DNA of 12,500 nucleotides, taken from NCBI GenBank assembly GCA_014634225.1, contig BLFN01000502.1, positions 3,873,243 to 3,885,742 of the forward strand, given 5' to 3'. Origin of the DNA: Acropora yongei. Taxonomy: Eukaryota; Cnidaria; Anthozoa; Scleractinia; Acroporidae. Below the pieces are notes generated by a model, which had not been told where the DNA came from, searched no databases, and saw only the letters and a list, made by a program, of their open reading frames with translations. The position numbers and the translations under genes were made by a program. Each line of letters begins with the position of its first letter. The first letter of the stretch is position 1. This document shows positions 1,066 to 12,500 of this stretch, one piece after another.

Positions 1066-1452
1066 GACGCACCGTTTTTCCAGAATTCCAAACAGATAGA
1101 TCCAGCCTTTCAAGCCGAACTTGACCGGCAGCAGTCCAGCATGCTTGAAAAGCTCTCTTCAATCATCGACAACAAACTAGACTCAATGAAAAGAGAGCTG
1201 GAAGAGTCCTCCAACACCCAAATGAGTGAATTAAAAAAGATCCGCCTTACGGAATCACGTACATTCAAAAAGAAAGGGCACGAACAGCAATTCAAACACA
1301 ACCAGCTGGTGAAGTCCGTGGTCAGTGAAGCCAAAGACGCCGTCACCAGTGGAAAACAGGACGCATGTATCGCCAAGCTGAATGAAGGTATTGAGCTCAT
1401 TGATCGACGCCAAAAGCTCATTTTAATAGCAGACAAATCTGAGTATGGCTGA
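1066..1452 (+). pseudogene. Gag-like coiled-coil region (N-terminal part of retrotransposon polyprotein)
   Basis: The frame is open from after the TAG at 1063-1065 to the TGA at 1450-1452. The first ATG is at 1141, but the frame before it (starting near DPAFQAELDR) already looks like protein, so the true start may have been lost upstream. The product is strongly charged and helical, with leucine/isoleucine spacing suggestive of a coiled coil, as expected for a YR-retrotransposon Gag that packages RNA. It ends abruptly at ADKSEYG followed by TGA. The sequence that should follow continues in the next frame from about 1445. A small insertion or deletion in 1445-1452 has therefore split Gag in two. 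Confidence 0.6.
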
Positions 1453-1987
1453 AACCGTCAGCAAATACCTAGACAACGAACTCGCCGATAACGACCAGGA
1501 CGCCAAGAAAATGAAAAAGGCCGAAAAAGAAGCTCAGAGAAAACTTGCCGAAACACGCGCCTCCAAGGCTGCAAGGGTTCGCTCCTGGTCATTCAAGTCT
1601 ACCAGAGCAGTGGGAAACACAGCTATTTCGCCATTACAAAGCTCGTTCGCTTTCCCATCAGGGAATTACACATCACGTTTTTCACAGTCCGCCGGTGCCA
1701 CAAGAAATATCGGTCCATTTGCAGGCGGTCCCGGCCAGAAACGTGGCACGTGTTTCAGCTGCGGTAAACCAGGCCATTGGCGAGCTGAATGTCCTTTGTT
1801 GGTCGTTGCACAGACTCAACCAGACGGAAAGAAGTTAAGTAATCATTTTATTGATTTATGTGATAGCGAATCCCTATCGGGGAGCAATGATGCCTCGGAG
1901 CATGTTTCTGGACTTTCTGAAATAGATAGTAGACCCTTTGAGAAGGCAGATTTTCTAGAGCGGGTATGCCGTCCAGACAGCGTTTGA
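1445..1987 (+). pseudogene. Gag C-terminal part with CCHC zinc knuckle
   Basis: This is the second part of Gag, in the +1 frame relative to the preceding piece. It starts with a lysine- and glutamate-rich helix, then a Ser/Gly/Phe-rich linker, then CFSCGKPGHWRAEC. That is an exact C-x2-C-x4-H-x4-C zinc knuckle, the nucleic-acid-binding module of Gag proteins. An acidic Ser-rich stretch follows. The frame ends at TGA 1985-1987 but reopens at once in the same frame as the reverse transcriptase. The knuckle and RT were therefore probably one continuous polyprotein, with the TGA as a later nonsense change. The ATG at 1445 is only the first in the frame, not a likely true start. Confidence 0.65.
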
Positions 1988-3480
1988 GGGAGGCTTAAAA
2001 CAAATATTTTAGCTTGGAAAGAGCTAGAGCCCACTGAAGCGGTCCTGAGTGTGATTAAAGAGGGTTATAAATTACCATTACACAGTATTCCGGAGTCCTG
2101 CGTTTTGCGGAATAATAAATCTGCCTTAGACAATAACGACTTCGTCACGGAGGCCTTAAATGATCTCTTAGGCACCCAGTGTATTTCCGTCGTTGAAAGC
2201 CAGCCATGGGTAGTAAATCCTCTCACTGTGTCAACCCGGGACGATGGGAAAAGACGTTTGGTACTCGATTTACGGCATGTTAACCCCCAGCTTTTTAAGT
2301 ATTAATTCAAATGCGAAGACGTAACCACAGCCCTGGATCTACTAGGGGAGGGTTATTATCTGTATACATTCGATATCAAGAGTGCTTATCATCACATTGA
2401 AATTTTTCCGAATCATCGAACTTACCTAGGATTCCAATGGTCCTATCGGGGTAAAGCGACTTATTTCGTTTTTAACGTGTTACCGTTTGGTCTGTCCACC
2501 GCTCCTTACATATTCACCAAACTCTTGAAACCTCTGCTAAGTCATTGGAGGGGTTCCGGTAAGAGAATTTGCATGTTTTTGGACGACGGTTTAGGCGGCA
2601 ATTCTTCCAAAGAGTCCGCTACTTTTGACGCCAAAGCATTCAAGGAAGATCTTGGCCGATTGGGCTTCGTTCTCAGCGGAAATAAGTGTGCTTGGGAACC
2701 ATCCCTTACCCAGACCTGGTTGGGTCACGTTTTCAATATGTCAGAAAACCGTTTGTATGTAACTGAAAACAGGTTGTCAAAATTAAAGGAATCCCTGTCA
2801 TCAGTTCTGGATAGAATTGACAATGTTTCAGCCAAACTCCTAGCCCAGGTTACCGGTCGCATTATATCCATGTCAAAAGCCATTGGTTCGGCCGTTTATT
2901 TGTACACCAGACACACGTATTTCGCGATAGAAACTAGGCAATCGTGGGATGCCATCATTCCTTGCTCTTCAAAGGTTAGAGAAGAGCTACAATTCTGGGA
3001 TAAAAATGTGGGACAGTTAAATGGCAAGAAGCTGTTCGACGAGCCTCATGTTTTTGATTCCATGGTTTATTCAGATGCATCTGAGCAGGGCTTTGGCGGT
3101 TACGTAGTTTCCGCAAAGCACACTTTGGTGTGTCAGGGGCAATGACAAATTAATGAAAGGGGAAAGAGCTCTACTTGGCGAGAGCTGAAAGCTGTACACA
3201 ATATGTTATTGTCCATTGGACATAGCCTTAGAGGACATAAAGTACAATGGCATACTGACAATCGGAACATTGTTCGTGTTATCGACAGAGGGAGCACGAA
3301 ACCTGATCTTCAATCATTGGTTAAAGACATCGTCTGTTTGTGTGCCGAAAATCACGTTGTAGTTGTCCCGGTGTGGGTACCCCGGGAGCAGAACCAGTTG
3401 GCTGATTATCTCAGCAAACTTACAGACGTTAACGATTGGGGTATTAGTCCAGACATTTTTCGGTGGATCAGCACTTTATG
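1988..3480 (+). pseudogene. Reverse transcriptase and RNase H of YR retrotransposon
   Basis: One frame runs through RT and RNase H, broken by TAA 2303-2305 and TGA 3143-3145. RT blocks in order: RRLVLDLRHVN; motif A FDIKSAYHH with the first catalytic Asp at 2372; LPFGLSTAP before the thumb; and the polymerase box as FLDDG, the DIRS/Ty3-like form. RNase H follows with YSDASEQGFGG, TWRELKAV, WHTDN and NQLADYLS, which supply the D-E-D-D metal ligands. The TAA falls in the fingers just before motif A. The TGA falls between the first two RNase H blocks, where a Trp is likely. The coding sequence is cut at 3480 by the DNA transposon and resumes at 11270. No protein can be made from this copy as it stands. 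Confidence 0.85.
3472..3480. repeat. Left copy of 9-bp target-site duplication
   Basis: CACTTTATG lies directly before the left inverted repeat and is repeated exactly at 11270-11278 directly after the right one. The bases outside each copy differ (G at 3471; G at 11279), so the length is 9 if the TIR begins TAGTCTCC. Confidence 0.93.
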
Positions 3481-3566
3481 TAGTCTCCCTCGCAGCCGTT
3501 TTTAGTCTCGTCACGCAACGCTCCTCCCCACAAACGGCTGCTCACATTCGAACAACATTCCTTTCC
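3481..3566 (+). repeat. Left terminal inverted repeat (86 bp)
   Basis: It matches the reverse complement of 11184-11269 at 85 of 86 positions; the only difference is G at 3498. Matching stops sharply after ATTCCTTTCC. Inside it, TAGTCTC occurs at 3481-3487 and again at 3503-3509, 22 bp apart. GCAGCCGTTT (3492-3501) is the exact inverted partner of AAACGGCTGC (3532-3541). Confidence 0.96.
3492..3541. repeat. 10-bp inverted repeat inside the left TIR
   Basis: GCAGCCGTTT at 3492-3501 and AAACGGCTGC at 3532-3541 are perfect inverted copies with a 30-base spacer. In the right TIR the single TIR mismatch reduces this to 9 of 10. It could be a paired binding site for a transposase dimer or a foldable end. 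Confidence 0.7.
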
Positions 3567-3695
3567 CTTTGTAGTCTTTGCACCAATGAGATCAATGACA
3601 TTGTTTCTTATATGACCAATCACAGCACAGGAGATTGCACTCAACATAGCTTTTCCCGCGAGTTTTCAAATTCTGCATTTGATCGTAGTTTCCAG
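3567..3695 (+). promoter_or_regulatory. Candidate promoter of transposase gene: CCAAT boxes and E2F-like site
   Basis: Between TIR and ATG lie CCAAT at 3583-3587 and 3616-3620 and TTTCCCGC at 3652-3659. The last is an exact match to the E2F consensus TTTSSCGC, 37 bases before the ATG at 3696. No TATA box is evident. The helicase gene at the other end has the same two motif types upstream, which raises the chance that they are functional. Confidence 0.45.
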
Positions 3696-4805
3696 ATGGA
3701 GGAAACGCCGAAGAAAGTTGTGCAAAGTGATCGTTGCTTTATTTGTTCCACTTCAGTTCAGAAAAAAGAAAAAATTTATATTTTTGGAAAAAGTTCTTTT
3801 GATTTTCCGGCGATTATTAGTTCCTGTCTGGATGTGAATGTGAGCTGCTATTCAGCTACCAGCGAGTTGTCAGTTTGTAAAACATGCTACCGACGACTGA
3901 TCAAGTTCAAAAAGGCCTCTGATCATCTTGAAGAGCTCAAAGATGAATTGAAGGAAATCTTCAAAGATCGCGAACTTCCCAGAACGAAGCGCTTATTGAA
4001 CGTTGAGAGCGACGGCGGAGAAACCCAAGCTTCGCGCTGTGGGAAATCCTCGAAATCTTTACAGTTCGATCCGATTAATACCACTTGTACTTCTAATGCT
4101 ATAGCCAATTCTAGTATTTCTACCGCAATCAGCCAACAGGTACGTTATGATACTCCGGCAAGATTTCCTATTGGTGCTATTGCTGTGTCTCCTATTCGAA
4201 GTCATACATACGGACTTGTGCTACAAGCTTTCCCTAGTCAAGTAAGACCCCCGTGCGAAATTCCTCAACCGATACTTACCTCTACTCCAATCGCCTCAAA
4301 AGCTTCTTCCATTCATCTTACTAATAATAATGAAACTTCAAAGACTGTTTTGAGCGTCCAGTATCCTAGTAAAACTATGAACAAAACTCTCTGTGGAAGC
4401 TATCAGACCATTGGAAAGGCTTTAGCGCATGGTGTACCTTCACAGATCGCAAATGCCGTAATGAAAAATCCAACACTTAGAAATCACGTCATTAAAAATG
4501 TATTCAAAACTTTGTCCAAAGAGGTGGCGGCGTTGTGCTCGAAAAAGAATCCTTCAATTTTAAGAAAATCTGGCAAAGAAGATCTGGCCAAATTCGACTT
4601 GCAACTCCTCTGCAACGAGTGGAAAGAGAGAGCTCCACTGTTCTACTCGTTCTTGATGACGTCCGCAGTAAACAAAAGGACCAAAGAGTGTTATTGGTTT
4701 TCAAGCATTGCCATAGCAGGATCAGTACTTTTAAAGCAAAGGAGTGAGAAAATAGATGCAACTGCTTCGATGCTTGGCGTACTTCTCAAGTCAAAATCAG
4801 TCGAG
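3696..4805 (+). CDS. Transposase exon 1: ZAD-like zinc domain and conserved helical region
   Basis: It encodes residues 1-370. CFIC near the N terminus, 43 residues, then CKTCYRRLIKF followed by a long charged helix is the layout of ZAD-type treble-clef domains (paired CxxC, then a helix used for dimerisation). A low-complexity Ser/Thr/Pro region follows. The last 100 residues contain WKERAPLFYSFL and are well ordered. The donor is GAG|GTCAGT at 4806. It ends on a codon boundary. Confidence 0.8.
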
Positions 4806-7800
4806 GTCAGTTATAGTAGTAATTTTCTTGCATAATGCCTGATGTGATGTTTACGGTTCCATACCGGCAGTGCTAAATTAAGTGAGATGTAGAGGGGATG
4901 GGGGATGAGTCCATCAGTTAAATTTATGTAATCACTAACAATAGTCATATATCCCAGTCATATTTATTGAAAAATGTATCATAGTGCGGTCCATGACATA
5001 AATCTAAAATAACAATGCAAAGCACCTGCAGTTACAATAGAAAGGGCATTTTGATGACAACTTTTTTGTCTATAATTTACTTACCAAATTCTTGCCAAGT
5101 TTTCTTTCTTAATATTCAAATTATTCTTCCTTCATGAAAATTAAAGTGATAGAGAAAACCAAAAAGAAACAAGAATGCCATGTTCAGATTCAACTCACCA
5201 GTTTTTTTATTTGTTTTGTCTTTATTTTTAAAGTAACATGCTATCAAATATTAATCTCAAAAAATCTCTTTTCAAATTACTTGTTTAGGGCAAGATATAT
5301 AAGACCTTTTTCACTTGTACATTTTGATTTCCCAATACAGATCATGTGATAATATGCAGGATATTTGATCCTTTGTCTTGCTCATTAAAAAGAATACATG
5401 CAAGTATGAATATGTCTGCATGTAGTATTTGTAATGAACAAGACAAAGGATCAAATATCCTGCAAATTATTATCACATGATCTGTGTTGGGAAAACAAAA
5501 TTTACAAGCAAAAAAGGTCTATTGCTGTAAGCTATTGATGATTTATATTATTTCATCTCTTTAAGGAAAGCTAGTAAAATATGTTACAATTGTTTCATGG
5601 GTTAGCTTACATGAACACTTAACAGGTTCACTTTGTTTTGTATAGGAGAGATACACAGTAGCCTATGTATATCTTTGCTTGCTCAACAGGCTACTATCTC
5701 CAGATTTAACAAGATGAAACTGACTAATGCAAATTCCAGTATCCTGAGAAAACTTGATGAGCTTGGTCAGAACTATGATGCAGATATTGTCCAAGCAAAA
5801 CAGCAAATTTCAAAGCAAAACAGAGAATTGAGGACTGCTCAAGATAAATGCAATGCTGCCTCTTCAAGACATGCTTCCCACACCCACTGTTCTACTGAAT
5901 GTCATGATGAAATCCAGTCAGCGTTCAGAGAGAAATGTGAGCTGGAAAAGGCAGCTCACCCTGGCTTTGTCATCTCTTTTGACAACTTGGACATTCACTT
6001 GGATCGAAAGAACATGACTATGGATTCACAAAACAAAGACTTCCACTGGGTAAATCATCAAATGGTTAAGAACAGAGTTTCTGGGGCTATGCTGGATTCT
6101 TCAGCACCAAAAACAAATCTGCTTGATGTTTGTAATTTGAAGTTTTTGCCATCAATGGAGGATCAAAAATGTCAGAGGCTTAACTACATTATCCTGTGTT
6201 CAAGAATATTGGTTGATTACTTTGATGTTTTAGCACCTTTGGCTGATGCCTGCATCCGACATATTCCACATAAATATTCAAATCAATTATCCCAGAAAAC
6301 CAAAAAGGTTTGTTTTACATAAATCATATTAGAATCATCAGAGAAATCCAATTTCAGGGTATGATTTATGTATGGTACCTTAATAGCTCAAGCTGGACCA
6401 AAAAGCTAAAATTCAAAAATGTGTATGGCTGGATAAACTTGTATTTCTTAAAATATAAATTTCAATAATGAAGTCAGACAAATGAACTGATCACATTTTG
6501 TTATTTATTAATACAATGTGAATCTTATGGGGCTGTTTTAGGGCAGCCAAGAAAGTGTTGCTTTCAATAATAAACCCCTAAAGTCCACACAGCCCTACCT
6601 AAATTGCCAAGGCATTAATTATAAATGCTCTATAATCTATAATCTTAAAACTCATCATTTCATCCACTTGTTGTTCAAGGCACAGAGTGCTTATGTCATG
6701 TATTTTCTATCTGCAATCATCTAATCCTTGTTTCACTCCCATTCAACTTGCAAGTGTCAGCTGCTAAGTGTATATGTGTGTCACTATAACAACTCAGTGT
6801 TTAAATTTGTATTTCAGGTTCCCCTTGGATTAATATTCAAGAACGAAAATGCCAATGAGGACATGATAGAAATTCTACAGCAATTCCATAATTATCTTCC
6901 TCAGACACACAATGGGGGTATAGATGGTCAGTTGTTTTCTGGAGACCAGCTAACAATTGAACGGGCACTGAATATTATATCCTCTGTGGCTAATGGTTAC
7001 ACTCCCAAAGACAGACTTGAAGGAATCAACTTACAACTGGGTGATTGGCATGCTGCTGTCAAACTACTCAGTGTGAGTAAAACAATATTAAAATTATCAA
7101 CACATTTTTTTACAAATTACATTTGTCACTGAAAATACTGTTATTTCTTATGTTAAGTACAATAGGTCTACTACTGATTCATCATCGTCATTATTTCATT
7201 GCACTATACTAGTGATAATCTAACAGATTGATTTTTTTTCTCGTCAACAGTTGATCTACTCCAGATTCTACAGTGAAAAATCAACAATTGACAGTTGCAC
7301 CATGTTTTCAGACTGCAATCTTATTAATCGAAGAAATGTTGCAGAGGATGTAACATCATCGTACCGTCCAGACAGAGACTTCCTTGAGATTGTGTTCCAG
7401 TCAAGAGTCATTGCAGCTGCCAAAAAAGTTCTTGGATTTGAAAACAAGACTACAAAGCCAACAAAGTTCAACTTACCATCTAGAATAGATTTGCTAAAGA
7501 AGTCACAAAAACTTAATTGCCTACATGAGCTAGCTGGCAAGGTCGTTGATGAATTTGTCTTTGACCAAAGTTCTTCTGTTGATGTCATTGTAAATGCTGT
7601 AGTGACTGAACAAGAGAAAGAAAATCTGCTAGGCCAACAGAACCTAACACCTGATGGCAGATTTCCCTGCCGATTTCCTGGGTGCAGCAGCACCTTTAAG
7701 TATGATGGCAAAAGCCGAAGAAATCATGAACTGAAGCATAACCCACCAGTTCAAGTCGAGGATCCACCTACTGAAATCACTTTATTCACACAAGTTCCCC

Positions 7801-8537
7801 CAACAACAGTAACTAAAGCAAGCACTGAAAATATCGAAGTTGGTGATGATTACTCTTCTGGAGTTACAAAGAAGACAAGTGATGATGTTTTCAACTACAA
7901 CTGCGCACTTTTGGCTGACTGTTTTCTGTTTTTTAATTTCCTCGATGCTATCAAAGAAGGCGATGGAATGAGGCTTATGAGACAGTACAAGTATTTTATG
8001 CTGTACTGTAAAGCAGATGATCCACATAGCACAAAATATTCACTAGAATGTTTGTACCAATTTTTTCTGGTCCATTCTCTGTTGTCACCTAGGGACAGTG
8101 AACGTTTTACTTGGAACCGGTTCACAAATAATCATGGTAAGAAAGGTACAAACATTCCTCTGGATGAGGCAACAGAGCACAGCAACAATTATGTGAAGCA
8201 AGCTATCAAAAACCTAGGACCAAACCTAACAGAGGCAGCCATATCAAGAATATGTAAAGCTGAGAGTTCTACATCATCAATCCTTGATAATCTTGATGAA
8301 TCTTTGAAACGACATGCAAAATCTGGCAAACATTCTGATCCATCTAAAGAGAGGGATCTGCATGAGCTAATCAAAAGAGCTGAGGAACTGAATGTCTTTG
8401 AGGAAACAGTGGGACGTTCTTATAATCATTTCTGTGACTTCAAGCGAGACAGGTTGAAAGATTTGGATGCCTCAAAATTATATCACTGGATTAATAAACA
8501 CAAGAAAAACATACTCAGGGGTATAAGAGCTAGATAA
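3696..8537 (+). CDS. DUF6589-family (Academ-like) transposase, four exons
   Basis: Predicted exons are 3696-4805, 5651-6307, 6818-7072 and 7251-8537, giving 1,102 codons with every junction in phase 0. Architecture: ZAD-like zinc domain (Cys 14, 17, 61, 64), variable Ser/Thr-rich linker, conserved helical region (about 270-420), core with FDNLD (D481/D484), GDQLT (D632), GDWH (D665, H667), C2H2 finger (814-837), EGDG (910-913), KYSLE (E940), WNRF and EH (983-984). The core motifs are those I associate with DUF6589, thought to be an RNase H-fold DDE-type transposase. D481, D632 and E940 are my candidates for the catalytic triad. No stop or frameshift is seen in any exon, so it may be intact. 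It would act in the nucleus on the element's TIRs. The ATG at 3696 is preferred over 3612, which sits inside the promoter motifs. Confidence 0.85.
4806..5650 (+). other. Transposase intron 1 (845 bp)
   Basis: AT-rich, with no gene. The donor GTCAGT is good. The acceptor is less certain. The strongest-looking AG (TTTTGTATAG, ending 5645) would put the next exon out of phase with the donor at 4806. The AG ending at 5650 keeps frame and joins KSVE directly to IHSSLC. The intron contains a 219-bp fold-back repeat at 5302-5520. The 71-codon open frame at 5134-5349 is AT-rich and shows no protein features. Confidence 0.65.
5302..5520. repeat. Fold-back (MITE-like) palindrome in intron 1
   Basis: The left arm, from AGACCTTTTT at 5302 to about 5388, is the reverse complement of the right arm (about 5430-5520) at roughly nine bases in ten. 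It includes an almost unbroken core around ACAGATCATGTGATAAT and AGGATATTTGATCCTTTG. The short centre folds again (ATACATGCA against TGCATGTA). This looks like a small non-autonomous element inserted in the intron. I could not define a target duplication, and no protein is encoded. Confidence 0.8.
5651..6307 (+). CDS. Transposase exon 2: coiled helix and first core aspartates
   Basis: It encodes residues 371-589. It opens with a helical block (SSLCISLLAQQA), continues with a Gln/Lys-rich helix (about 415-435) and a His/Cys-rich patch (HASHTHCSTECH, about 444-455), and reaches FDNLD at 480-484, the first conserved acidic site of the core. The donor AAG|GTTTGT at 6308 falls between codons. Confidence 0.82.
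6308..6817 (+). other. Transposase intron 2 (510 bp) with imperfect hairpin
   Basis: GT at 6308-6309 to AG at 6816-6817 (TTTGTATTTCAG). AT-rich, with no gene. A hairpin pairs GGGCTGT/TTTAGGG (6530-6543) with CCCTAAA (6576-6582) and ACAGCCC (6589-6595), with a 6-base bulge. It may be a decayed small repeat. Confidence 0.75.
6818..7072 (+). CDS. Transposase exon 3: GDQLT and GDWH core motifs
   Basis: It encodes residues 590-674. It contains SGDQLTIERA (D632), followed 33 residues later by GDWHAA (D665, H667). This pair, with an Arg-Leu-Glu stretch between, is the most recognisable part of the DUF6589 family. Both splice sites are strong: TATTTCAG before, and AGT|GTGAGT after. Confidence 0.85.
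7073..7250 (+). other. Transposase intron 3 (178 bp)
   Basis: It runs from GTGAGT at 7073 to TTTTTTTTCTCGTCAACAG at 7250, both close to consensus and phase 0. No other feature is seen in it. Confidence 0.85.
7251..8537 (+). CDS. Transposase exon 4: C2H2 finger and C-terminal core
   Basis: It encodes residues 675-1102 and the stop codon. A C-x4-C-x13-H-x3-H finger (Cys 814, 819; His 833, 837) lies between the second and third conserved core blocks, as an insertion within the catalytic domain. After a Thr-rich linker come EGDG, KYSLE (E940, candidate third catalytic residue), WNRF (962-965) and TEHSNNYVKQAIKNLG (H984). The end is lysine-rich (HKKNILRGIRAR). The frame is open throughout. Confidence 0.87.
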   Translation: MIYSRFYSEKSTIDSCTMFSDCNLINRRNVAEDVTSSYRPDRDFLEIVFQSRVIAAAKKVLGFENKTTKPTKFNLPSRIDLLKKSQKLNCLHELAGKVVDEFVFDQSSSVDVIVNAVVTEQEKENLLGQQNLTPDGRFPCRFPGCSSTFKYDGKSRRNHELKHNPPVQVEDPPTEITLFTQVPPTTVTKASTENIEVGDDYSSGVTKKTSDDVFNYNCALLADCFLFFNFLDAIKEGDGMRLMRQYKYFMLYCKADDPHSTKYSLECLYQFFLVHSLLSPRDSERFTWNRFTNNHGKKGTNIPLDEATEHSNNYVKQAIKNLGPNLTEAAISRICKAESSTSSILDNLDESLKRHAKSGKHSDPSKERDLHELIKRAEELNVFEETVGRSYNHFCDFKRDRLKDLDASKLYHWINKHKKNILRGIRAR

Positions 8538-8852
8538 ACAGAGTAAACAAAACATTTTTTTGTTGGTACCGGTACATGGGAAATTGAATTCTGTAGACCA
8601 TAGCTTTTGAGAATTCACTGTCTATTTAATATGTAATTGCAGTGATAAGTAGTCTATGAATAGACCGGACCAACACAAATGTACGATCAAATTTTATGAG
8701 AGCCTAGTGACAAGTATGTGCCAATGATGACAAACTGTTACAGCCAAAAAATTTCAAAACAGGACCCCAAAAAAGTCTGTTGGCCCAGATCTGCCTCTGT
8801 CCAGTACATGATACAGTTAAGTCAATGACATTAATGTTACTTACAGTAGTTA
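8538..8852. other. Region between the two convergent genes
   Basis: About 315 bases with no gene. It should hold the 3' ends and polyadenylation sites of both genes. AATAAA does not occur on + after the transposase stop. On - a variant ATTAAA is present near 8625-8630. GTACCGGTAC at 8566-8575 is a perfect 10-base palindrome with no known role here. Confidence 0.5.
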
Positions 8853-9011
8853 TCAGTGATCCAGTGTTATATTCTCAACAGTTGCCAATACTGCTGGTGG
8901 CATTACATCATCATCGCATGAATCATTGGCATTTTCCTCTTCCAGTGCTGAGCTTTCTAGGTGTGACAATGACATATTGTCCACAATCATCTCATAAAGT
9001 TCATCATCTTG
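8853..9011 (-). pseudogene. Stranded acidic tail of helicase beyond in-frame TAG
   Basis: After the helicase TAG (9014-9012) the same frame stays open for 52 codons, to TGA at 8855-8853. The tail has 15 Asp/Glu and no Lys or Arg, beginning QDDELYEMIV. The residues just before the TAG (YEFDDDLLDEW) have the same acidic character. The frame therefore looks like one continuous C terminus cut by a nonsense mutation. Readthrough is possible in principle (the codon after TAG is CAA) but has no further support. Confidence 0.6.
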
Positions 9012-10263
9012 CTAAAATTCATGCCATTCATCAAGTAAGTCATCATCAAATTCATAGTTATCGGTATCATTTACAACAACTAGTGAGTCACTGTTAACAT
9101 TGATGTCCTGAAATACATTGCTTACAATTGAAAGGATTCTCTGTGCATGCCTTCTGTCCCATATTTCTACCAAGTTGTAAACATCGGCTGTTGTGAAAAT
9201 TCTGTGCAAGTTATCTAGAACCTGTGATATTTGGTGCTGTGAAAATCCCAACATAAATTGTAAATTTGTTAGGGTCTTCACATTTCCATTTGCAGTGGTA
9301 TCAACCAGTTGCATGATGATAGATTTGTGATAATTTATCAAATTGTCTTCTGCAACTTTCCTTTGCAGTTGCAACACTTCTCTTTCTTTAGATGTTGGCA
9401 GAGTGTCCTTGTATGCTGTGACAGGGCATTTAGTAATGTTATCAGAGTGTGGCATACCACATTTGCATTGAGCAGCACAATTGTCACAACAAAGGTGGGG
9501 TTGCTCTGGATACAGGGACACAGACTCAAAATGATTCAGAAGGGTTTTTCTCCTGCACTCTTCAGTCTTAATGAAAGACTTCATATGGGCATCAATATGG
9601 TTTAACACAACTCCATGGTATAAAACATATGCAACGCTTTGGTGGCCATCCCTTCCTGCCCTGCCAGTTTCCTGGACGTAGGACTCCACATTCTTGGAAG
9701 GTCCAAAATGTATGACTCTATGAACACCTCGGCAGTCAACGCCCATTCCAAAGGCTATAGTTGCTATTAGTAGACGAATGGTACCATTGTCAGACTGAAA
9801 GGACTCCAAAATGTTATGCTTATTGGCTTCAGGAGTGCAGGAATGCAACATTTTAACAAGCACATGTTTCAAGTCAATTCCAGTAAACATATATTCTCCT
9901 AAGAGAGCTTTAATAGTAGCATAAAGTAAACCACACTGTCTTATAGTCTGGCAATAAATAATAGTTCCTTCTGTTTTCTCCCGACTCTGTTTCAGTTCAT
10001 CAGTAAGCCAGCCAAAATAGAATTCCATTTCCGTATCCTTATCCATATATTGCACAACATAAGCAACATTTAATTTATTTGGACTTTCCTTAATTTCTAC
10101 TGCATTTTTCATGTTCAGAAGGTTAAAAAATGTGTCTCTGGTCAGTTTTGTGGCAGTTGCAGTCAAGGCTACTATTGGCACATTTGGTGCGAGTGACCTT
10201 AATTCATACAGCTTTGAGTAAGACTCGCGGAATGATGCCATTTTATTATCTTGGGACGTTCCC
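9012..10263 (-). CDS. Helicase exon 2: motifs III-VI and zinc site
   Basis: It begins after the acceptor AATGTGTAG with the last base of the split Trp codon, then GTSQDNKMAS. It holds the second RecA-like domain, the CRR...CCDNC zinc region, and a C-terminal part rich in helices ending in an acidic stretch cut by TAG at 9014-9012. The open frame before 10263 (starting MQFIFLLMCR) is intron sequence, not protein. Confidence 0.85.
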
Positions 10264-11075
10264 CTACACATTAAAAGGAAAATAAACTGCATTAATCTCT
10301 AATGAAATTTATACTAATAATAAAAATAACAATAATATAATGAAAACTTAATTAATATTTTTAATAATTTAATAATAATAATGTCTTGTTTTTAGACAAA
10401 ATAGTTTTACAGGTGATCATGTGTAATATAACTCAGACAGTGATAACCAAAATAAGACCACAATGTAATATTAATACTGACTAACCTATTTACATTTTCT
10501 ATTTACAATATTTACATTCTTATTGTCCTTTCCTTTATACTGCTTAGAACATACATGTAAAATGACATTTGTCCATTGCTGTAGACTCGTTTTTACTTAA
10601 ACACTTACCACTGTCTTACAACATGCGCTTCATCCACTGCAATGGCACAGAGTTTTTTGGAATATACAGAGTTCATCAGCATAAATCTCCAGTGTTCGTT
10701 CTTCAGCCACGCTTCAGGTGATCCGTAAACTAAGGAATATTCGCCACTTTCAACACGAGTGTCTTCACCTTTCTCAAGTGAACTTATGTTAGCTGCTTTT
10801 AGCCCTAGCTTCTTCAAATGGGACACTTGGTCCTCGATAAGGCTTATCAATGGTGAGACAACGACGACGATATGACCAGGCTCTTGTGAGGTCAGATCAA
10901 ACACGAGTGGCAGTGCTTGATACAGGAGAGATTTCCCGAAACCAGTAGGAAGATTGACAAATACATCCTTTTTTTCCTCAACTATTTTCCTAATTGCAGT
11001 TTTTTGCTGCGCATTTAAGCTAGGAATTCGAAATGTATTACTAACAACATCAAACGCTTCTTCAAAGGTCGCCAT
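9012..11075 (-). CDS. RecQ-like superfamily 2 DNA helicase, two exons
   Basis: Exons are 11075-10609 and 10263-9012, 572 codons. The junction splits the Trp codon of DEAHVVRQW. Motifs in order: LNAQQKTAI (Q motif, 20-28); motif I TGFGKS (44-49, Lys48 binds ATP); SPLISLI (74-80); motif II DEAH (148-151); motif III TATAT (190-194); IIYCQT (257-262); motif V IATIAFGMGVD (312-322); motif VI QETGRAGRDG (343-352). C382 and CCDNC (404-408) form the RecQ zinc site. A helical, possibly winged-helix-like, region follows. There is no HRDC. After DEAH the usual RecQ aromatic-rich loop (GHDFRP type) is replaced by GTSQDNKMASF, so coupling of ATP use to DNA may differ. It lies inside the TIRs, so it is transposon cargo, probably unwinding or repairing DNA during transposition. 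It converges on the transposase gene. The ATG at 11075 gives the conserved start. Confidence 0.85.
10264..10608 (-). other. Helicase intron (345 bp)
   Basis: Read on -, the donor GTAAGTGT starts at 10608 and the acceptor TGTAG ends at 10264. It is very AT-rich with AAT/ATT runs and shows no gene or repeat of note. The splice restores the W-G junction expected right after the DEAH box of RecQ-type helicases. Confidence 0.88.
10609..11075 (-). CDS. Helicase exon 1: Q motif, Walker A and DEAH
   Basis: It encodes residues 1-156, the first RecA-like domain up to DEAHVVRQW. The first ATG of the conserved protein is at 11075. An upstream in-frame TTG at 11105 extends the open frame by ten codons but is not needed. 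Confidence 0.87.
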
Positions 11076-11183
11076 TTTGAAAGCTTTGACTCCAAGATGA
11101 AACAAACAATATGATTGGTTAGATTACTTTGGCGCGCAGAGTTCTCGACATATGTAACCTGAATGGTGATTGGTTTAAGTGGC
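11076..11183 (-). promoter_or_regulatory. Candidate promoter of helicase gene: CCAAT boxes and E2F-like site
   Basis: On -, CCAAT occurs at 11118-11114 and 11173-11169. TTTGGCGCGC at 11128-11137 matches the E2F consensus TTTSSCGC and overlaps a GGCGCGC core. The site is about 53 bases before the ATG at 11075. No TATA box is evident. The same motif types are found upstream of the transposase gene, and ACCAATCAC is shared between the two regions. Confidence 0.45.
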
Positions 11184-11269
11184 GGAAAGGAATGTTGTTC
11201 GAATGTGAGCAGCCGTTTGTGGGGAGGAGCGTTGCGTGACGAGACTAAAAATGGCTGCGAGGGAGACTA
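11184..11269 (-). repeat. Right terminal inverted repeat (86 bp)
   Basis: Reverse complement of 3481-3566 with one mismatch (T at 11252). GAGACTA, the inverted form of the left-end heptamer, occurs at 11263-11269 and 11241-11247, keeping the 22-bp spacing. Confidence 0.96.
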
Positions 11270-11278
11270 CACTTTATG
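11270..11278. repeat. Right copy of 9-bp target-site duplication
   Basis: CACTTTATG, identical to 3472-3480, abuts the right TIR and continues into the retrotransposon coding frame (TGG GGC CCT). Confidence 0.93.
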
Positions 11279-11754
11279 GGGCCCTTTTACAGTTGACAGG
11301 TTCGCAACTTGATATAACGCCAAATGTCTTAGATTTAATTCCCGCTTCTGGAATCCTGGCTGCGAGGGCGTGGATGCCTTTACCCAAAATTTTCAGGGGG
11401 AAAACAACTGGCTGGTACCCCCACCAAGCCAGATAATTAGGGTATGGCGCCACCTCAAGCTTTGCAAAGCACAAGGGGCTTTAATAATACCCCTGTGGAA
11501 AGGAGCTTTGTTTTGGCCATGTGTGTGTCCGGACGGGGTCCATTTAGCTAAATGTGTTTTGGACTGGGTTGGAGTTCCAGAATTCAGTTCGGCCGCCACG
11601 ACAAGGGGAAGGACTTACAATTCTATGTTCCATGGTGAACGTCTCGAATTCAAACTTATAGCTTTGTACATAAACTGGCAGTCTATTCGCCCAGCAAGCA
11701 GTGACAGAGGTTTTTGCTTGTCAACAGAAGGTTTGTGTGAACGTTGCATTCGAG
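11270..11754 (+). pseudogene. C-terminal pol region of YR retrotransposon (after RNase H)
   Basis: It continues the RNase H frame after the inserted transposon: TLWGPFTVDRFAT, TGA at 11310-11312, then YNAKCLRFNSRFWNPG. The rest is open to a TAA at 11757-11759. Blocks such as ENNWLVPPP, IRVWRHLKLCKAQGALIIP, ALFWPCVCPDG and DWVGVPEF are what I associate with the conserved segment between RNase H and recombinase in DIRS-like pol proteins. In some lineages this segment is assigned to a methyltransferase-like domain, but I see no methyltransferase motif here. At its end CATTCGAG|GTTAAA is a plausible splice donor that would join this region, in frame, to the recombinase at 12002. Confidence 0.7.
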
Positions 11755-12001
11755 GTTAAACAAATCCTTAACTTAGCCGTCTACGGCAGGAGCGAATTGC
11801 AGCCCACAGGAGGCAAGACAATAATGAACCCGCAGGTGGTTTATGAAGGAACCCACAGGTGGTTTTGAACACCAGGCCCTTGAATATCGTTCACTACACT
11901 CACAGGTGGTGTTATAAGATTCATAGTAGCATATTAACATCGGAGATGGCTTCAATCTCATCTTTGTTTTTTATCATGCACAGTCTCTCTGTTTCTCACA
12001 G
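11755..12001 (+). other. Probable intron joining pol to the tyrosine recombinase (247 bp)
   Basis: The donor GTTAAA at 11755 is modest. The acceptor (pyrimidine-rich TCTCTCTGTTTCTCACAG, ending 12001) is strong. Joining 11754 to 12002 completes a Gly codon and keeps the frame open into the recombinase. Without splicing, the pol frame stops at 11757. The interval also holds four degenerate copies of CRCAGGTGG. Confidence 0.5.
11803..11910. repeat. Four dispersed copies of a CACAGGTGG-type motif
   Basis: CCCACAGGAGG (11803-11813), CCCGCAGGTGGT (11829-11840), CCCACAGGTGGT (11852-11863) and CTCACAGGTGGT (11899-11910). Spacing is irregular. They resemble neither splice sites nor known terminal repeats. 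They may be remnants of a short tandem repeat. Confidence 0.5.
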
Positions 12002-12500
12002 GTTTAAACCTCTTTGATCAAGGCCCGTGGAAGGAGCTTGAAGACCGCGCAGGATCTGGCCGTGGGAGCATTCATCTCACCCGCTTGTTTGAAGCGTTAA
12101 AGCAGACAGTCTTTTCTTCAAAAGCTTGTGGAACCGTTGTTAATTACACTAGTTCTTTAAATCGTTGGATTAAGTTCGCACGCGATAATAATTTAATCAT
12201 TTTCCCAGTTACTGTTGTTGATGCCGCTTTGTATTTTAGTTATTTGTCCACTTCTCAAGTTTCTGCCTCCGTGATCGAAACTTGTTTTAGCGCTTTAAAA
12301 TGGGTTCACGACATTGCTGGGGTTTCTAACCCTATGATTAGCCCTTTTGTAAGAAACGTAGTCGAGGGCGCTAAACGTCAAAATGCTAAACCTGTAGCAA
12401 AGAAATCACCCATTTCTCATGAGGGTCTTACAGCATGTTGTATAGAGCATTCTAGGGAGCTACCAATACGTAGGGATATTTCTATGGCCTTACTTTTGTT
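12002..12500 (+). CDS. Tyrosine recombinase of the YR retrotransposon, N-terminal part
   Basis: The frame is open from the acceptor to the window edge (about 166 codons) with no stop. The visible part is the helical, core-binding (SAM-like) domain of phage-integrase-type recombinases: TVVNYTSSLNRWIKFARDNN, then a helix with YFSYLST, then SALKWVHDIAGVSNP, then NVVEGAKRQNAKP. The last bases (RRDISMALLL) correspond to the start of the catalytic domain, just before the first catalytic Arg is expected. The R-H-R-Y residues are outside the window. In this element class the enzyme inserts the circular DNA copy without a DDE integrase. No ATG near the start is needed if it is joined to pol by splicing. 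Confidence 0.75.

What the first reader, a model, noticed from the sequence alone, without database searches (positions are those of the whole stretch)
3481..11269. Complete two-gene DNA transposon: DUF6589 transposase plus RecQ-like helicase between 86-bp TIRs
Both ends, both duplications and both genes are present, so the element can be defined to the base. The TIRs are 85/86 identical and the transposase exons carry no visible damage, suggesting a recent insertion. Helicase cargo is unusual for cut-and-paste transposons and suggests a replicative or repair-coupled mechanism. A named helicase-carrying Academ lineage (AcademH) may already cover it.
Basis: partly seen in the sequence, partly recalled or inferred. 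Interest (0 to 1): 0.85.

Follow-up and report, generated by a model that had tools for sequence, protein, structure and literature searches.

The report
Coral helicase-carrying DNA transposon (AcademH-type)
This is a nearly complete jumping gene, probably from a reef coral, that carries a transposase and a DNA-unwinding enzyme; it matches what has been reported for the known AcademH group, so it is a good new example rather than a new kind of element.

Summary
A 7,789-bp element at 3481-11269 has 86-bp terminal inverted repeats (85/86 identical) and a perfect 9-bp flanking duplication, CACTTTATG. It interrupts a degenerate retroelement; joining the flanks through one duplication restores that retroelement's reading frame. 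It encodes a four-exon 1,089-aa DUF6589 protein (E=6e-44) and, convergently, a two-exon RecQ/WRN-like helicase. Nearest hits are coral proteins: helicase 91% to Montipora capricornis, transposase 49% to Acropora palmata.

Corrections: the 572-aa helicase probably ends at a premature stop (97 of 114 comparable relatives run at least 30 residues further; but the closest one, P0006, is also short). The transposase is 1,089 aa, not 1,102. TIR identity does not date the insertion.

RecQ helicase in Academ (PMC3627910) and 9- or 10-bp duplications for AcademH (PMC10045372) are in print, so the helicase is the lineage's trait, not a surprise. Best reading: a new AcademH-type family. Not shown: that DUF6589 is the Academ transposase (no labelled sequence; founding paper not held), a catalytic fold (model failed), and other genomic copies (genome search did not complete).

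The parts
3472..3480 (.). target-site duplication, left copy (CACTTTATG)
3481..3566 (+). left terminal inverted repeat, 86 bp
3492..3541 (+). inverted repeat inside the left TIR (10-base arms 3492-3501 and 3532-3541)
   Evidence: DNA fold z -3.45, 0 of 200 shuffles as stable; the right TIR has a broken pair: z -0.85, 36 of 200
3696..4805 (+). transposase exon 1: Cys-rich N-terminal domain resembling zf-AD, and linker
   Evidence: zf-AD E 5.2e-4, 20.6 bits, below Pfam's cut-off of 28; N-terminus resembles Exaiptasia P0126, E 2e-10
5690..6307 (+). transposase exon 2, holds candidate catalytic D468 and the start of DUF6589
6818..7072 (+). transposase exon 3, holds candidate catalytic D619
7251..8537 (+). 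transposase exon 4 with stop codon, DUF6589 remainder, candidate catalytic E897
10609..11075 (-). helicase exon 1 (Walker A, DEAH motifs)
   Evidence: DEAD Pfam match
9012..10263 (-). helicase exon 2 (Helicase_C, RecQ_Zn_bind), ending in the probably premature stop at 9012-9014
8856..9011 (-). about 52 in-frame codons beyond that stop that resemble the tail of P0007; probable lost C-terminus
   Evidence: translation against P0007; coordinates by arithmetic
11184..11269 (-). right terminal inverted repeat, 86 bp, 85/86 identical to the left
11270..11278 (.). target-site duplication, right copy (CACTTTATG)

Best explanation
A two-gene, TIR-type DNA transposon of the AcademH kind, inserted in a degenerate tyrosine-recombinase (DIRS-like) retroelement in a coral-like genome. 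Shown: ends, 9-bp duplication, restored empty-site frame, the two gene structures, DUF6589 and RecQ-family identities. Inferred: the DUF6589 protein is the DDE-type transposase (candidate triad D468, D619, E897) that binds the TIRs, cuts the element out and joins it to target DNA with a 9-base stagger that the host fills in; the RecQ-like 3'-5' helicase is an accessory factor that opens or remodels DNA at the ends, target or gapped junctions. In this copy the helicase may be impaired by loss of a probably disordered C-terminal tail.
For: 86-bp TIRs, 85/86, with 9/9 duplication. Joined flanks read FRWISTLWGPFTVDRFAT in the frame of the RNase H ORF (RNase H-like match RVT_3 E 1.9e-6). DUF6589 E 6e-44 over residues 523-1022; all 6 of 6 members of A1 match DUF6589; nine acidic positions invariant in 6 of 6, among them D468, D619 and E897. 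Helicase: best solved relative WRN E 2.8e-44, family profile against WRN 2.3e-73, all 50 listed Foldseek rows are RecQ-family chains (model of relative P0008, pLDDT 77). Several helicase lineages occur within one species (Montipora capricornis P0006 and P0008, 60% identical), and 59 of the 120 listed relatives start at the place of the exon boundary found here, as expected of a dispersed intron-bearing family. AcademH = helicase + 9- or 10-bp duplications, AcademX = nuclease + 3- or 4-bp (PMC10045372 passage); RecQ helicase in Academ (PMC3627910 passage).
Against: No labelled Academ or AcademH transposase was available, and no paper in the library mentions DUF6589. The structure model of the transposase relative failed (pLDDT 39) and its profile found no transposase among solved structures (best E 0.023 to an RNA-editing protein), so the DDE fold is unproven; nine invariant acidic residues leave other triads possible. 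No second genomic copy was seen (genome search unanswered 19 of 19; exact TIR core patterns 0 matches in genome contigs and viral contigs, both collections poor in animal DNA). The duplication length has a 5-bp alternative.
Confidence: 0.84

Rival explanations
1. Same element, but replicative: the helicase unwinds the element so that it is copied out (or peeled off and copied) rather than cut out.
For: A processive RecQ-type helicase is encoded within the TIRs; the left TIR has a perfect 10-base-arm inverted repeat that could fold when single-stranded.
Against: TIRs plus a short duplication are what cut-and-paste leaves. No replication initiator, Rep/HUH or polymerase match in the ORFs scanned. 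The right TIR does not fold better than shuffles (36 of 200 as stable).
Confidence: 0.12
2. A composite: a transposon of another kind (for instance one moved only by the DUF6589 protein) that picked up a host RecQ gene as a passenger.
For: Helicase is convergent to, and separate from, the transposase gene; no second copy with both genes could be inspected.
Against: The helicase is nearer to a many-lineage coral family than to host WRN (best listed relatives 91-37% identical; WRN about 27-29% in the structural alignments) and the pairing of helicase with a 9-bp duplication is that reported for AcademH.
Confidence: 0.06
3. Assembly or chance artefact.
For: Single locus examined.
Against: TIR probe 2 matches against a chance mean of 0.00, duplication flush with the TIRs, host reading frame restored.
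Confidence: 0.01

Closest known systems
AcademH (Academ DNA transposons with helicase; Kojima 2020, cited in PMC10045372 and PMC10799480, itself not held)
   Same: Helicase-encoding TIR element with a 9-bp duplication; animals and fungi as hosts according to the cited title; RecQ helicase reported in Academ (PMC3627910)
   Different: Nothing tested differs. Transposase kinship, terminal bases and gene orientation could not be compared. In this copy the helicase is probably C-terminally truncated.
AcademX
   Same: Same superfamily as AcademH (PMC10045372)
   Different: Described with a nuclease and 3- or 4-bp duplications; here a helicase and 9 bp, and no nuclease match in the ORFs scanned
KolobokH and Kolobok-1_CCri (PMC9587614)
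   Same: DNA transposons carrying a RecQ helicase; in Kolobok-1_CCri on the complementary strand, as here
   Different: KolobokH is reported only from fungi; the C/DxxH signature of Kolobok is absent between the candidate second D and E
WRN/BLM/RecQ helicases
   Same: Core and fold
   Different: Divergent coral family with its own C-terminal region; no exonuclease domain matched

Membership tests
AcademH | 9- or 10-bp target-site duplication | tested here: met
   CACTTTATG, 9/9; definition from a passage of PMC10045372. A 5-bp reading is not formally excluded.
AcademH | encodes a helicase (RecQ reported for Academ) | tested here: met
   PMC10045372, PMC3627910
AcademH | Academ-type DDD/E transposase | not testable with these tools
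   no labelled Academ sequence; DUF6589 in no paper of the library; fold model failed
AcademH | terminal inverted repeats | tested here: met
   86 bp, 85/86
AcademX | 3- or 4-bp duplication and a nuclease | tested here: not met
   9 bp; no nuclease domain in the 18 ORFs or 2 spliced proteins scanned against Pfam
KDZ (Kyakuja-Dileera-Zisupton) | KDZ transposase domain (name recalled) | tested here: not met
   only DUF6589 passed Pfam's cut-off in the spliced transposase; whether Pfam's KDZ model would catch a distant member was not tested
[quoted passage not shown]
   no [CD]xxH in residues 619-897; depends on the assumed triad

The most novel reading that the evidence does not exclude
The RecQ helicase is an obligatory motor of an unusual transposition route (unwinding the element into a copied or hairpin-ended intermediate, helped by the inverted repeat inside the TIR), and the switch from 3-4 to 9-10 bp duplications within Academ is set by that motor rather than by the transposase.
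Probability: 0.08. Interest if true: 0.7.

Novelty: new member of a known kind. Interest (0 to 1): 0.33.

Why it matters
It gives a base-precise element, with an apparently intact transposase frame and both ends, for a transposon lineage whose helicase has no tested role in what I saw in print. It gives a candidate function for DUF6589, a Pfam family of unknown function that is present in animal proteins such as those of Acropora, Exaiptasia, Clytia, Lingula and Branchiostoma. It also shows RecQ-like genes annotated in coral genomes as WRN-like or 'mediator subunit 34-like' that may be transposon genes.

Tried and rejected
Genome-wide copies: the same genome search (own genome, 120 bases of left end) was sent 19 times and never answered, so copy number, consensus ends and deletion derivatives are unknown.

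Relatives in other collections: transposase profile A1 in genome contigs gave 42 pattern stretches and in viral contigs 61, none encoding a relative by tblastn; exact TIR cores gave 0 matches. These collections hold prokaryotes and viruses, so this only says that no such relative was found there.

A second, profile-based transposase search returned only P0001 and P0126 and did not list P0002-P0005 again; only the 7,992 candidates sharing most words were scored, so distant or fungal relatives may have been missed. The first search likewise scored 7,995 candidates, and the helicase table shows 120 of 7,460 hits.

Transposase structure: model of P0001 from six sequences had pLDDT 39, pTM 0.32 and was not searched further; the sequence profile found no transposase in the PDB.

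Helicase truncation: a strict motif for the tail was found in only 38 of 120 relatives, too strict for diverged tails; the alignment count, 97 of 114 with at least 30 residues beyond the stop, is the one I use. Against it, the closest relative P0006 (562 aa) is short too, and the tail of relative P0008 is modelled with low confidence (548-623 mostly below 50).

Age from TIR identity was rejected as an argument. AcademX, KDZ, Kolobok and Helitron were considered; no Rep/HUH match was seen in the scanned ORFs. PMC4522978 (passages) concerns subtelomeric RecQ genes of a fungus and did not bear on this.

Full report
What is there. Positions 3481-11269 hold a 7,789-bp element bounded by 86-bp terminal inverted repeats with one mismatch. 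The flanks carry CACTTTATG on both sides, 9 of 9. Because the bases next to the TIRs (TG on the left, CA on the right) also pair, a reading with 88-bp TIRs and a 5-bp duplication leads to the same empty site; 9 bp is the simpler reading and the one that fits the lineage. A TIR probe has two matches, against a chance mean of 0.00 in 200 shuffles.

The empty site. The element interrupts an older retroelement: a zinc-knuckle ORF (E 6.6e-7), a reverse-transcriptase match (E 1.6e-15), both, an RNase H-like match (RVT_3, E 1.9e-6), and downstream a weak tyrosine-recombinase-like match (Phage_int_SAM_1, E 4.9e-4, 20.8 bits, below Pfam's 22.3). Its coding frame is broken by stops, so it was already, or has since become, degenerate; 'DIRS-like' is my inference. 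Joining the flanks with a single copy of the duplication continues the RNase H frame as FRWISTL-WGPFTVDRFAT and then, after one stop, YNAKCLRFNSRFWNPGCEGVDAF. As a control the joint was slid by 1 to 3 bases: shifts of 1 and 2 lose the frame; shifts of 3 keep it but add a stop and residue (-3) or change and drop residues at the joint (+3). So the insertion is real and its ends are right to within that.

The transposase gene. DUF6589 covers residues 523-1022 (E 6e-44, 150.8 bits against a cut-off of 27). The N-terminus has a Cys-rich module resembling zf-AD (E 5.2e-4, below cut-off) and matches the N-terminus of an Exaiptasia relative (E 2e-10). Relatives found: Acropora palmata 49%, Branchiostoma, Lingula and Clytia 26-28%, plus Exaiptasia 35% over a third of the query; none of the named ones is prokaryotic. 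Nine acidic positions are invariant in 6 of 6 aligned proteins; D468 (in a FDN motif), D619 (GDQLT) and E897 (KEGDG) are my candidates for a DDE triad. This is conjecture: the structure model was unusable and no solved transposase was found by profile.

The helicase gene. On the minus strand, two exons give 572 aa with Walker A, DEAH, TATAT and QETGRAGRDG motifs in order. It is RecQ-family: WRN is the best solved relative (E 2.8e-44), the profile of 36 relatives reaches 2.3e-73, and the 50 Foldseek rows listed for the model of relative P0008 are WRN, BLM, RecQ, RECQ1 or RECQL5 chains. Beyond its stop about 52 codons continue in frame and resemble the tail of P0007. Of the 120 relatives listed, 114 reach this end of the protein and 97 of these run at least 30 residues past the stop. 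The closest relative, P0006, does not, and the tail is poorly modelled in P0008, so loss of function does not follow.

Host and family size. Helicase relatives named by their source are largely stony corals (Montipora, Stylophora, Oculina, Porites), with sea anemone and octocoral entries. In a tree of 92 of 121 sequences (those of 440 aa or more) the window pairs with M. capricornis P0006 (support 99) inside a ten-row clade (99). M. capricornis also has P0008, 60% identical to P0006. Multiple divergent lineages per species, and 59 of 120 listed relatives that begin at the exon boundary seen here, fit a dispersed, intron-bearing transposon family. Genomic context of these relatives was not seen.

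How it most likely works. From the anatomy: the transposase recognises the TIRs, cuts, and inserts with a 9-base stagger which repair turns into the duplication. That is established for DDE elements generally and inferred here. The helicase's part is inference: opening ends or target, or processing gapped junctions. PMC10045372 (passage) remarks that the difference in duplication length between AcademH and AcademX seems related to helicase against nuclease. Within the left TIR a 10-base-arm inverted repeat folds better than 200 of 200 shuffles, but the right TIR has a broken pair and does not stand out (36 of 200).

Comparison with what is known. The two traits stated for AcademH in the passage I saw, helicase and 9- or 10-bp duplication, are both met; AcademX's (nuclease, 3-4 bp) are not. 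'RecQ Helicase in Academ' is mentioned in PMC3627910 (passage). KolobokH also carries RecQ, but Kolobok's C/DxxH signature (PMC9587614 passage) is absent between my assumed D619 and E897. Transposase membership in Academ could not be tested; I therefore call it AcademH-type. Searches for AcademH, Academ and DUF6589 gave no paper describing this element; the founding AcademH paper is not held and may well list coral families.

Verdict. A real, well-delimited, nearly intact element of a lineage already in print. Useful as a specimen and as a hint to what DUF6589 does; not a new kind of system.

Noticed in passing
1066-3480 and 11279-12498: Degenerate retroelement split by the transposon: zinc-knuckle ORF, reverse transcriptase, RNase H-like, weak tyrosine-recombinase-like match; looks DIRS-like.
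   Followed up: partly
5302-5520: Large near-palindrome (two nested inverted repeats of 53-54 nt arms, 91%) inside transposase intron 1, probably a nested foldback or MITE insertion.
   Followed up: no
3492-3541: Perfect 10-base-arm inverted repeat inside the left TIR; the only TIR mismatch breaks the corresponding pair in the right TIR.
   Followed up: partly
1-516: Open reading frame of 171 aa running off the window start with no Pfam match above cut-off and no solved relative.
   Followed up: partly
11826-11869: Two copies of a 23-bp tandem unit in the right flank.
   Followed up: no
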